In this document: in pieces, positions 28,920 to 33,061 of the stretch
How the letters are laid out: each line of letters begins with the position of its first letter
Numbering within the stretch: the first letter of the stretch is position 1
Origin: an uncultured Fusobacteriaceae bacterium
Lineage (GTDB): Bacteria; Fusobacteriota; Fusobacteriia; Fusobacteriales; Fusobacteriaceae
DNA: 42,066 nt
Direction: 5' to 3'
Assembly: GCA_947072665.1 (NCBI GenBank)
Contig: CAMTIW010000006.1
Span: 1-42,066, forward strand
Notes under the pieces: model-generated
Told to the model about the DNA's origin: nothing
Databases searched by the model: none
Seen by the model: only the letters and a program-made list of their open reading frames with translations
Translations under genes and position numbers: made by a program

Positions 28920-29984
28920 TTATTTAGCCTCCTTAATAACTTTTAAAAAATCATCGAATAAATAATTTGAATCTTCTGGACCAGGCCAAGCTTCTGGATG
29001 ATATTGTACAGATGCAATATTTAATTCTTTACATCTCATTCCTTCATTTGAACCATCATTTACATTAATATGCGTCTCCTTCATTTTTTCAGGCATTTTA
29101 TCAATTACATAACCATGATTTTGTGAAGTTATAAATATTTTGTTTTTCTCTAAATCTTTAACTGGATGGTTACAACCTCTATGTCCATATTTTAATTTTT
29201 TAGTAGTTCCTCCAAGAGCCCAAGCTAAAAGTTGATGTCCTAAGCATATTCCCACTATTGGTTTTTTTCCTATTATTTTTTTTATTTCCTCTATAACATC
29301 ACTGAGTTCAGCAGGGTCTCCTGGTCCATTAGAAAGGAAAACACCGTCTAAGTCATGTGAAAGTATCTCTTTGGCTTTTATATTCCACGGGAAAACTGTT
29401 AAAGAACAATTTCTTGCAGTAAAATTTCTTAAAATATTATTTTTTACTCCAAAATCAATTACTCCTATTTTTAAATCTGGATTTTCTACCTCTATCTTAT
29501 ATATTTCTTTGGTACTTACATTTGGAACTGCTGATATATTTGAAAATTTTGAAAACTTTTCTATTATTTCACTTTGTTTCAAATCTTCTGTTGTTATTAT
29601 AGCCTTCATAGTTCCATTTTCTCTTATAATTTTTGTTAGATGTCTAGTATCTAAGCCTTTTATTCCAATAACATTATGCTGTTTTAAAAAACCATCTAAA
29701 GTCATTTCACATCTAAAATTATTTGGTAATTTAGCTTCTTCTTTTATAATTAAAGCTCTAACTTTTACCCCAGAAGATTCCATATCTTCTAAGTTAATAC
29801 CATAATTTCCAACTTGTGGATAAGTTAGTACCACCATTTGTCCAAAATATGAAGGATCAGTTAATAACTCTTGATATCCTGTCATTCCAGTATTAAAAAC
29901 TAATTCCCCTACACTTTCATTTAAGCTCCCAAAAATTTTTCCATGAAATATCATTCCATTTTCTAAAATTAACTTCCCTTTCAA
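28920..29984 (-). CDS. carA: Carbamoyl-phosphate synthase, small (glutaminase) subunit
   Basis: 354-residue glutamine amidotransferase subunit. The N-terminal domain has [20 protein letters not shown] near 29-48. The class I glutaminase domain has the nucleophile in [15 protein letters not shown] near 241-255 and the His-Glu pair in [10 protein letters not shown] near 326. Start is TTG at 29982-29984 after AGGGGGC; no ATG fits better. First structural gene after the attenuated leader. Confidence 0.97.
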
Positions 29985-30005: not shown

Positions 30006-30037
30006 AAAAAAAAAGATATAGCTAAATAGCTATATCT
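30006..30037 (-). terminator. carAB leader attenuator (intrinsic terminator)
   Basis: On the minus strand AGATATAGCT pairs perfectly with AGCTATATCT around ATTT, followed by nine T, ideal for intrinsic termination. It lies before carA, just upstream of its ribosome-binding site, and overlaps the last codons and stop of the leader peptide gene. A ribosome finishing the leader would cover the first arm and allow read-through. Confidence 0.88.
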
Positions 30038-30162
30038 AAAATATATAAATTATTAATATTTTTTAAAATAAAAAATTTATTTTTAAATGAATTAGAAAAT
30101 ATATTTTTAAAAATTAATATAAGATTGTTAGTTACTAATTTATCATCTATAAATTTTTTCAT
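30022..30162 (-). CDS. carAB leader peptide (46 codons)
   Basis: A short frame starts at ATG 30160-30162 six bases after a perfect GGAGGAG site and about 30 bases below the promoter. It encodes 46 residues rich in Phe, Ile, Leu, Asn and Lys (start MKKFIDDKLVTNN), with no known homology. Its mRNA is extremely U-rich, and its TAG stop lies inside the attenuator hairpin. I read it as a regulatory leader in the manner of E. coli pyrL: when UTP is low, RNA polymerase pauses on the U tracts, the ribosome catches up and blocks the terminator. Confidence 0.75.
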   Translation of the reverse strand: MKKFIDDKLVTNNLILIFKNIFSNSFKNKFFILKNINNLYILDIAI

Positions 30163-30197: not shown

Positions 30198-30225
30198 ATT
30201 ATACTTGATTTTTAATTTTTGTCAA
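30198..30225 (-). promoter_or_regulatory. Promoter of carAB
   Basis: On the minus strand consensus TTGACA (30220-30225) and TATAAT (30198-30203) with a 16-base spacer. It lies 29 bases after the fic stop codon and about 215 bases upstream of carA, leaving room for the attenuated leader. Confidence 0.88.
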
Positions 30226-30253: not shown

Positions 30254-31468
30254 TTACAATTTTTCTTTTACCCAACTAGTTAATATATGTTTTGAAGGTG
30301 TATGACTTATTTTTTCTATATATCCTTTAATTTTTAGTGAATTTAGGTATTTATTAAGTGTCACTCTAGAAGCTATTTCTAAATATTTCAAAATATTACT
30401 ATCTAATAATGTAAAATCATCAGAAAAAACATAGTTTTGAATGTAAAAAAATAGGATATCTTTTTCAACTTCTTTTAATTTTATATTTTCTAAGTAAGAT
30501 TTAGCGTGTTCTAACTTTAAAATCTTATCCTTCAACATAATCAAGATACTATCTTGACCTTTCAAAATAAATTCTAACATACCTTTAATAAAAAAAGTTA
30601 CTTCTCCACAGTTTCTACTATTGGAAGTTTCAGAGAACAGTTTTGAATAGCCTTCTTTATCTGCAAATATTGTATAGGATAATGATAACCCTGTATATAT
30701 ATCAATTTTTTTTGCTAAATAATTTGAAAATAATACTCTTCCAAATCTTCCATTACCATCGTAGAAGGGGTGAATGTATTCAAAATAATAATGAACAATG
30801 GAAACTTTTATTAAAGCAGGAATATCTTTTTTATTCATGAATTCTATTAAACTTTCCATATGAGATAAAATAAGCTCTTCAGATGGGTCTCCAGTATGAA
30901 TATTTTTAAATCCATCAGTTATATGAATTCCCTCTTTTCTAAAAAATTTTCCATCTAATTGATTTTCAGGATTTTCTAAAATATCTTCTTTAAATATTTC
31001 ATCATATATCTTACGAATATCTTCTGAAGAATTTATTTTATCTATTTTCCCCTCAATTATTTTTAAATATTTATTTATGATTCCAGATAATCTAGTATTT
31101 TTTTTACTGTTTAAACTATTATAAATATCTTTCTTTGTGGTTCTTACCCCTTCTATACCATTAGTTTTTATTATTTCATTAACCATTATTTCATTAATAC
31201 AGGAATATTTTCCAATGTTCGGTATTTTTTCTGATAATATAGTTATTTCTTTACTTTTCATAAAAATTTTTTCTTGTAAAATTTGAAATTCTGGAAATGA
31301 AAGATAAAAAAGTCTAAAAACTTCTGAAGAATTTCTCTTCCCTTTAGTTATAGGGTTTATTTCTAAATCAGTTACATAAGCACATGGATTTTCCAATCTT
31401 TTTTTTAATTCTTCATTTATATCATATTTTTTATAAAATAGTTTCTCCAAAGTTTGATAATCTTTCAT
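30254..31468 (-). CDS. Fic family protein (class II AMP transferase)
   Basis: A 404-residue protein with an N-terminal Fic_N-like region, a Fic domain and a C-terminal winged helix. The catalytic loop HPFYDGNGRFGR (about residues 233-244) matches the HPFx(D/E)GNGRxxR consensus, so AMP transfer to a target hydroxyl is expected. The inhibitory helix motif TNGIEG near 102-107 fits (S/T)xxxE(G/N) and lies N-terminal to the catalytic loop, defining class II. The winged helix (TLNKYLNSLKIKGYIEK near 370-386) suggests DNA or regulator contact. ATG at 31466 with AAGGAGG. Its target is unknown. It sits between the two divergent pyrimidine operons but has no evident mechanistic link to them. Confidence 0.9.
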   Translation of the reverse strand: MKDYQTLEKLFYKKYDINEELKKRLENPCAYVTDLEINPITKGKRNSSEVFRLFYLSFPEFQILQEKIFMKSKEITILSEKIPNIGKYSCINEIMVNEIIKTNGIEGVRTTKKDIYNSLNSKKNTRLSGIINKYLKIIEGKIDKINSSEDIRKIYDEIFKEDILENPENQLDGKFFRKEGIHITDGFKNIHTGDPSEELILSHMESLIEFMNKKDIPALIKVSIVHYYFEYIHPFYDGNGRFGRVLFSNYLAKKIDIYTGLSLSYTIFADKEGYSKLFSETSNSRNCGEVTFFIKGMLEFILKGQDSILIMLKDKILKLEHAKSYLENIKLKEVEKDILFFYIQNYVFSDDFTLLDSNILKYLEIASRVTLNKYLNSLKIKGYIEKISHTPSKHILTSWVKEKL

Positions 31469-31738
31469 AATTCCTCCTTTTTATCATTTTATAATATATT
31501 ATATCATATTATAATAACAAAAAGTATAGTTTTTATGTTTTTAATAAAAATAGAGTGAATAAAAAATTTACTCTGTTCTTTATGTTCTCTGGAGGCATAT
31601 CCATTCCTTTTGTCAATATATTACAACAAAGAACTTTATGGTTTTTTTAAATTTTTATTGAAGTTCATTTGCAAGTTCTAAAATGAAATATATAATACAT
31701 TTTAATTTATATCAAATTATATTTATAAAAAAAAATGC
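31469..31738. other. Intergenic stretch between fic and the pyr promoter
   Basis: No gene is supported here. It contains the ribosome-binding site and TATAAT-like words upstream of fic, an imperfect hairpin AGAGTGAAT/ATTTACTCT (about 31552-31574), and a patch near 31575-31640 that is less AT-rich than its surroundings and could be a relic of coding sequence in either direction. Confidence 0.35.
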
Positions 31739-31767
31739 TTGTTAATTTTACTTTTTCATGATAGAAT
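31739..31767 (+). promoter_or_regulatory. Promoter of the pyrBKDFEC operon
   Basis: TTGTTA (31739-31744), 17 bases, TAGAAT (31762-31767). It lies 34 bases before the leader peptide ATG and its GAGGGGG site (31787-31793). Boxes are less perfect than those of carAB. Confidence 0.65.
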
Positions 31768-31801
31768 TTTCCAAATATAAAAAATTGAGGGGGAATTATA
31801 A

Positions 31802-31987
31802 ATGAATTTATTTTTTAAATCAAAATTTATTAAATTTAAATCTGTAGTCTCATTTATCTTTTCTATTTTCCAATTTTATTTAGATAATTATATTTTCAAA
31901 AACATTAATTATATATTTTATTATAAAGAAAGAAGTGTCTTCTATGATTTTCATAGTCGTCACTTCTTTTTTTATATAATAAATTAG
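31802..31987 (+). CDS. pyrB operon leader peptide (61 codons)
   Basis: Small frame directly behind promoter and a strong Shine-Dalgarno. The 61-residue product (start MNLFFKSKFIKFK) has 15 Phe, all encoded by U-rich codons, and no recognisable domain. Codons about 43-57 form the two arms of the intrinsic terminator, and the TAG stop (31985-31987) overlaps the Shine-Dalgarno of pyrB. A ribosome close behind RNA polymerase would therefore prevent the hairpin and then be delivered to pyrB. Architecture matches a pyrL-type UTP-sensing leader; a true functional protein is unlikely. Confidence 0.75.
   Translation: MNLFFKSKFIKFKSVVSFIFSIFQFYLDNYIFKNINYIFYYKERSVFYDFHSRHFFFYIIN
31929..31973 (+). terminator. 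pyrB leader attenuator (intrinsic terminator)
   Basis: AAAGAAGTG (31929-31937) pairs with CACTTCTTT (31961-31969); an inner CTATGA/TCATAG stem with a TTT loop extends the hairpin past a small internal loop, and T7 follows. It ends 26 bases before the pyrB ATG and is fully contained in the leader frame. Confidence 0.86.
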
Positions 31988-31999
31988 GAGGTATTATTT

Positions 32000-33061
32000 A
32001 TGATTAATTTTATATCTATGGAAGATTTTTCAAAAAAACAACTTTTAAATGTTTTAGAATTAGCAAAAGAATTAAAGCATAATCCACAAACTAACCTAAT
32101 TGATAATAAAATAATAGCTACTTTATTTTTCGAACCTTCTACTAGAACTAGATTATCATTTACCTCAGCAGTGTATAAAATAGGTGGAAAAGTTTTAGGT
32201 TTTGATTCCCCAGATGGAACTTCTGTTCAAAAAGGCGAATCTTTAAGAGATACAATAAAAGTTATTGAAAATTATTCTGATCTTATTGTTATGAGAAACC
32301 CACTGGAAGGCTCTGCTAAATTTATCTCTGATTTCTCTACTGTTCCAATTATTAATGCTGGAGATGGTTCCAATGAACATCCTTCACAAACATTTTTAGA
32401 TTTGTTCACGATTTACGAAGAACAGGGGAGAATAGAAGGTTTAAAAATTGCATTTATTGGAGATTTAAAATATGGAAGAACAGTTCATTCTTTAACTAAA
32501 GCACTATCACTTTTTAACTGTGAATTTTATTTTATAGCACCAGATATAATTCAAATTCCTGATTATATCACTACAGATTTAGATAAAAAAAATATAAAAT
32601 ATAAGTTACTTAATGATTTTAATGAAGTAATAAACAATATAGATATTATGTATGTAACAAGAATTCAAAAAGAAAGATTTGATAATATTGATAACTATGA
32701 AGAAGTTAAAGATAGTTTTGTTATAAAAAAGTCAAATTTAGAAAAAGTTAAAGAAAATTTAATAATTCTTCATCCCTTACCTAGAGTTAATGAAATTTCA
32801 ATAGATGTGGATAATACAAAATTTGCCAAATATTTTAAACAGGCTGCAAATGGTGTCCCTGTAAGACAAGCTTTAATTGGAATAGCTTTAAATAAACTTA
32901 ATTTTGAAAAATTAACTTCTATTAATAAAACTATTTTATCCACTAATACTGTTATTTGTAAAAACTCAAAATGTATTGCTAAAAATGAAGAAACTGAAAA
33001 TAAATACATTCTAGAAGATGGTATTAAAAGTTGCTACTATTGTGGAAAAAAAATAAACTAA
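32000..33061 (+). CDS. pyrB: Aspartate carbamoyltransferase fused to a PyrI-type zinc domain
   Basis: Commits carbamoyl phosphate and aspartate to pyrimidine synthesis. Residues 1-about 305 are a complete catalytic chain: carbamoyl-phosphate site FEPSTRTRLSF near 44-54, HPSQTFLD near 131, HPLPRVNEI near 258, and the chain end QAANGVPVRQALIGIALNK. Residues about 308-353 match only the zinc-binding domain of regulatory chain PyrI, with Cys320, Cys325, Cys345 and Cys348 (CKNSKC...CYYC). The nucleotide-binding domain of PyrI is absent and no separate pyrI is seen. The ATG follows TAGGAGG, shared with the leader stop. First gene of the six-gene pyr operon. Confidence 0.95.
   Translation: MINFISMEDFSKKQLLNVLELAKELKHNPQTNLIDNKIIATLFFEPSTRTRLSFTSAVYKIGGKVLGFDSPDGTSVQKGESLRDTIKVIENYSDLIVMRNPLEGSAKFISDFSTVPIINAGDGSNEHPSQTFLDLFTIYEEQGRIEGLKIAFIGDLKYGRTVHSLTKALSLFNCEFYFIAPDIIQIPDYITTDLDKKNIKYKLLNDFNEVINNIDIMYVTRIQKERFDNIDNYEEVKDSFVIKKSNLEKVKENLIILHPLPRVNEISIDVDNTKFAKYFKQAANGVPVRQALIGIALNKLNFEKLTSINKTILSTNTVICKNSKCIAKNEETENKYILEDGIKSCYYCGKKIN

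What the first reader, a model, noticed from the sequence alone, without database searches (positions are those of the whole stretch)
31739..31999. pyrB operon leader peptide runs through its own terminator into the pyrB ribosome-binding site
The 61-codon U-rich leader contains the whole terminator (codons about 43-57), and its TAG overlaps the pyrB Shine-Dalgarno. So the translating ribosome would both prevent termination and be released exactly where pyrB starts. This combines attenuation with translational coupling in one compact element. No PyrR-binding stem-loop is recognisable.
Basis: partly seen in the sequence, partly recalled or inferred. Interest (0 to 1): 0.75.

Follow-up and report, generated by a model that had tools for sequence, protein, structure and literature searches.

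The report
PyrL-type pyrimidine attenuator in Fusobacteriales
The short reading frame in front of this bacterium's pyrimidine-synthesis genes runs into a transcription stop signal, exactly as in the textbook E. coli pyrBI switch. The same device sits in front of pyrB and carAB across most of the Fusobacteriaceae and some of their sister family, so a switch best known from E. coli is widespread in a distant phylum, although its response to UTP has not been tested.

Summary
A 61-codon frame (31802-31987) with a good Shine-Dalgarno site runs through an intrinsic terminator (31925-31973, z -9), and its TAG overlaps the pyrB Shine-Dalgarno. This is not chance. Of 95 terminators in front of pyrB or carA in Fusobacteriales genomes, 77 are entered by an SD-led frame, against 0.4 expected from shuffles. 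The same window holds a second device of the kind before carAB on the other strand. The architecture equals E. coli pyrL, which I fetched: terminator inside the leader frame, stop 3 nt before pyrB. The best reading is therefore pyrL-type attenuation: RNA polymerase slows on the U-rich leader when UTP is low, the ribosome keeps up and prevents the terminator from folding. PyrR is absent here and found in only one genus of the order, where an Rfam PyrR element replaces the leader. There is no conserved antiterminator. New member of a known kind. The extension to carAB (apparently also uraA) and to a whole phylum is, as far as I could search, undescribed. UTP response and leader translation are untested.

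The parts
31739..31767 (+). pyr operon promoter: -35 TTGTTA, 17-nt spacer, extended -10 TGA-TAGAAT
   Evidence: a -10 box about 34 nt (median) before the leader start recurs in relatives
31787..31793 (+). leader Shine-Dalgarno GAGGGGG
   Evidence: sequence
31802..31987 (+). PyrL-like leader ORF, 61 codons, U-rich; runs through the terminator
31925..31973 (+). intrinsic terminator (attenuator) inside the leader ORF, ending in 7 T
31985..31987 (+). leader stop TAG, overlapping the pyrB Shine-Dalgarno
31986..31991 (+). pyrB Shine-Dalgarno AGGAGG
32000..33061 (+). pyrB, aspartate carbamoyltransferase with a C-terminal four-cysteine extension resembling the PyrI zinc domain; first gene of pyrB-K-D-F-E-C
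30198..30225 (-). carAB promoter TTGACA-16-TATAAT
30022..30162 (-). second leader of the same kind, before carA, 46 codons; TAG lies in the terminator loop
30006..30037 (-). carAB attenuator hairpin AGATATAGCTATTTAGCTATATCT followed by T8
28920..29984 (-). carA, carbamoyl-phosphate synthase small subunit

Best explanation
This is a pyrL-type transcription attenuator of the pyr operon. Transcription starts about 28 nt before a U-rich leader ORF that overlaps an intrinsic terminator just upstream of pyrB. When UTP is plentiful, RNA polymerase outruns the first ribosome, the terminator folds and transcription stops. When UTP is low, polymerase pauses along the U-rich leader, the ribosome translates up to or into the hairpin sequence, the terminator cannot fold and pyrBKDFEC is transcribed. 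The same device controls carAB next door. Shown: ORF, terminator, their overlap, its conservation, absence of PyrR, absence of a conserved antiterminator. Inferred: translation of the ORF, pausing, UTP as the signal. Re-initiation at pyrB after the leader stop is an optional, lineage-specific extra.
For: SD-led ORFs enter the terminator in 77 of 95 pyrB/carA leaders, 0.42 expected. In the leaders found, in-frame stops before the hairpin number 3 against 302 and 443 in the other two frames (partly by selection). The hairpins are strong (mean z -6.1) while the upstream leader is no more folded than shuffles (mean z -0.26), so no antiterminator. T exceeds A in the last 60 nt in 91% of leaders, mean T-A +0.20, against -0.09 in coding windows of this window. 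The promoter-to-start distance is consistent, median 34 nt from -10 to start. PyrR occurs only in genus g8, exactly where the pyr leader is an Rfam PyrR element. E. coli pyrL has the same layout, and its mechanism is established experimentally (PMC10135430, PMC4824070, PMC5021804).
Against: No expression, ribosome or UTP data exist for these loci. Peptide-level selection on the leader is weak (pN/pS 0.39 in frame against 0.55 and 0.85 out of frame), though peptide sequence is not expected to matter. The U bias of the carA leader here is modest (91 of 1063 coding windows reach it). Leptotrichia-like genus g17 and genus g11 lack the leader at pyrB.
Confidence: 0.85

Rival explanations
1. Classical amino-acid attenuation: a ribosome stalls at starved codons and frees an antiterminator.
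For: A leader reading frame and a terminator are present.
Against: No antiterminator: upstream folding equals shuffles. No runs of one regulatory codon in the leaders. Stop codons lie inside the hairpin, whereas amino-acid attenuators keep the terminator more than 20 bp from the leader gene (PMC4824070).
Confidence: 0.04
2. A trans-acting RNA-binding protein or a riboswitch other than PyrR controls the terminator, and the ORF is incidental.
For: PyrR does so in one genus of the order.
Against: No Rfam element, no structured upstream RNA, and the frame stays open into the hairpin in 77 of 95 cases against 0.42 expected.
Confidence: 0.05
3. The leader acts mainly by translational coupling to pyrB, the terminator being constitutive.
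For: The leader TAG overlaps the pyrB SD here; similar stops occur in G068 pyrB and in seven g3 carA leaders.
Against: In most relatives the stop is 35-65 nt upstream inside the hairpin, and pyrB has its own strong SD.
Confidence: 0.04
4. Chance ORF over an ordinary terminator.
For: The genome is AT-rich and the leader U-rich; a single leader of this length stays open in 3.5% of shuffles.
Against: Recurrence across 12 genera at pyrB and 13 at carA; coding-like frame statistics.
Confidence: 0.02

Closest known systems
E. coli pyrBI attenuator with leader peptide PyrL
   Same: SD-led U-rich leader ORF, intrinsic terminator wholly inside it, stop overlapping the pyrB start region (TAA 3 nt before ATG in E. 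coli, TAG 12 nt before ATG here).
   Different: No evident peptide similarity; longer leader (61 against 44 codons); in most Fusobacteriales the stop is inside the hairpin; the same device also heads carAB, which in E. coli is controlled by ArgR, other DNA-binding factors and reiterative initiation (PMC6245113).
E. coli rph-pyrE attenuator
   Same: Translation close to a terminator relieves termination (PMC2784333). The uraA genes of many Fusobacteriaceae look like this: an upstream ORF stops in the hairpin 5' arm.
   Different: At pyrB and carA the reading frame is a dedicated leader, not a full gene.
PyrR attenuators (Bacillus type, Rfam RF00515)
   Same: Attenuation of pyr operons by an intrinsic terminator; used by genus g8 of the same order.
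   Different: No PyrR gene and no PyrR element in this genome.
Amino-acid operon attenuators (trp, his)
   Same: Leader peptide plus terminator.
   Different: No antiterminator, no regulatory codon runs, and the stop codon is inside or beyond the terminator hairpin.

Membership tests
pyrL-type (UTP-sensitive, translation-dependent) pyr attenuator | Intrinsic terminator directly upstream of the pyr structural gene | tested here: met
   Hairpin 31925-31973 with 7 T, z about -9
pyrL-type (UTP-sensitive, translation-dependent) pyr attenuator | Leader ORF with SD whose frame enters the terminator | tested here: met
   conserved; same layout in E. coli
pyrL-type (UTP-sensitive, translation-dependent) pyr attenuator | U-rich leader upstream of the hairpin | tested here: met
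   53% T here; E. coli pyrL needs U for 49% of the sequence (PMC10135430)
pyrL-type (UTP-sensitive, translation-dependent) pyr attenuator | No antiterminator | tested here: met
   Upstream fold z +0.83 here, mean -0.26 over 25 representatives
pyrL-type (UTP-sensitive, translation-dependent) pyr attenuator | UTP-dependent pausing and translation-dependent read-through | not testable with these tools
   Needs transcription or reporter assays
PyrR attenuator | PyrR gene in the genome | tested here: not met
   NF003549 absent here, present in 3 of 96 genomes, all genus g8
PyrR attenuator | PyrR-binding element (RF00515) | tested here: not met
   None in 31400-32100; found in g8
Amino-acid attenuator | Mutually exclusive antiterminator | tested here: not met
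Amino-acid attenuator | Run of regulatory codons and a stop well before the terminator | tested here: not met

The most novel reading that the evidence does not exclude
Fusobacteriales run a pyrimidine regulon (pyrB, carAB, uraA, perhaps upp) controlled only by ribosome-shielded terminators, using either dedicated leader peptides or the 3' end of an unrelated upstream gene. It evolved separately from the enterobacterial pyrL and rph-pyrE switches and was swapped for PyrR in one genus.
Probability: 0.5. Interest if true: 0.62.

Novelty: new member of a known kind. Interest (0 to 1): 0.48.

Why it matters
The pyrL switch is best known from E. coli and was not described in Fusobacteriota in any paper I could search. 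There it appears to be the main pyrimidine control, extends to carAB, and is replaced by PyrR in one genus. That gives a natural test of how one regulatory logic is swapped for another. It also predicts close transcription-translation coupling in a phylum far from the model organisms. In Ilyobacter the leader is annotated only as a hypothetical protein, so the function is unrecognised there.

Tried and rejected
The first version of my terminator finder missed the window's own hairpin; it was replaced. Rfam gave only chance microRNA-like and sRNA hits at this locus. The genome-contig scan returned four distant pyrB loci (L003-L006); by eye none has such a leader. No paper was found that links Fusobacteria with pyr leader-peptide attenuation; a PyrR-plus-Fusobacteria search listed only papers whose titles and abstracts were off topic, and an F. 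nucleatum transcriptome paper has no mention of pyr attenuation in its main text. Many subscription papers are not held, including the main review. CTP synthase was not found in this incomplete genome. A PDB search to name the organism was uninformative; the family was instead named through Ilyobacter polytropus.

Full report
What is there. A promoter (31739-31767), a strong Shine-Dalgarno site, a 61-codon U-rich ORF (31802-31987), an intrinsic terminator inside it (31925-31973), and a TAG that overlaps the SD of pyrB (ATG 32000) follow each other in 260 bases. The operon behind is pyrB-K-D-F-E-C. On the other strand carA (29984) has its own leader: TTGACA-16-TATAAT, SD, 46-codon ORF 30162-30022, with the TAG in the loop of a terminator.

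Whose genome. In Ilyobacter the pyrB leader ORF is annotated only as a hypothetical protein of 56 residues.

Is it more than chance. In 96 genomes of the order, 78 pyrB and 49 carA upstream regions were read. Of these, 49 and 46 have an intrinsic terminator just before the gene. In 37 and 40 of those, an SD-led ORF of at least 25 codons enters the hairpin; shuffles of the same sequence give 0.25 and 0.17. With a looser SD criterion, 44 pyrB and 45 carA leaders were tabulated. Between related genomes the leader frame shows a weak coding signal: pN/pS 0.39 in frame, 0.55 and 0.85 in the other frames.

Where the leader stops. Of 44 pyrB leaders, 5 stop beyond the hairpin (G000, G022, G032, G068, G085), 38 inside it and 1 before it. 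Of 45 carA leaders, 8 stop beyond (seven g3 genomes at -9 or -10 from carA, and G006), 36 inside and 1 before. So the conserved feature is that translation reaches the hairpin; running on to the next gene is a variation.

How it would work. The leader before the hairpin is no more structured than shuffled sequence while the hairpins are strong, so there is no antiterminator to switch. What remains is direct shielding of the hairpin by the ribosome. The leader is U-biased. In E. coli pyrL, exactly this arrangement makes read-through depend on UTP: polymerase pauses on the U-rich leader when UTP is low and the coupled ribosome prevents the terminator from folding (PMC10135430; PMC4824070; PMC5021804). 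I fetched E. coli pyrL: 44 codons, terminator inside the frame, TAA 3 nt before pyrB. I therefore assign the same mechanism, with UTP sensing inferred.

PyrR. PyrR is present in only 3 of 96 genomes, all in genus g8, and there the region before pyrR-pyrB carries an Rfam PyrR element (two above the gathering score, one just below). In most other Fusobacteriaceae the translated leader stands in its place. Genera g17 and g11 have neither at pyrB in my reading, which remains unexplained.

Wider regulon. uraA is preceded in 16 examined genomes by an ORF of at least 126 codons, in this genome a thioesterase-like protein (named by eye), whose stop lies in or at the 5' arm of a terminator about 40-110 nt before uraA. 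This resembles E. coli rph-pyrE, where the distance of the rph stop from the attenuator matters (PMC2784333). In genus g2 uraA has a short dedicated leader with the stop in the loop. Gene ends often touch terminators, so this part is suggestive only; other genomes show neither.

Verdict. Real, conserved and functionally interpretable; the kind of mechanism is known. New are the phylum, the reach to carAB, and the exchange with PyrR, as far as the searchable literature shows.

Noticed in passing
L151 (uraA of this genome, G000:C74:3615): A thioesterase-like gene ends (TAA) inside the 5' arm of a terminator 54 nt before the uraA match, an arrangement like E. coli rph-pyrE; a similar arrangement occurs in 15 other genomes.
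   Followed up: partly
L167, L173 (genus g2, uraA): uraA has a short PyrL-like leader ORF whose TAG lies in the terminator loop.
   Followed up: partly
L148 (upp of this genome): upp follows a small gene that looks like rpmE (ribosomal protein L31); its stop directly abuts a terminator hairpin about 30 nt before upp, possibly another read-through switch.
   Followed up: no
32000-33061: PyrB carries a C-terminal four-cysteine extension (CxxxxC...CxxC) like the PyrI zinc domain; some relatives such as Ilyobacter have a separate pyrI instead.
   Followed up: no
30254-31468 (-): A Fic-domain protein gene (weak match to the protein adenylyltransferase family, below its cut-off) sits between the divergent carAB and pyr operons.
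   Followed up: no
L144 and L145, upstream of purine permease-like genes: Sequences that look like purine riboswitches by eye; not run against Rfam.
   Followed up: no
L118-L120 (genus g8): The only genus of the order with PyrR, and with a PyrR-binding element before pyrR-pyrB.
   Followed up: yes
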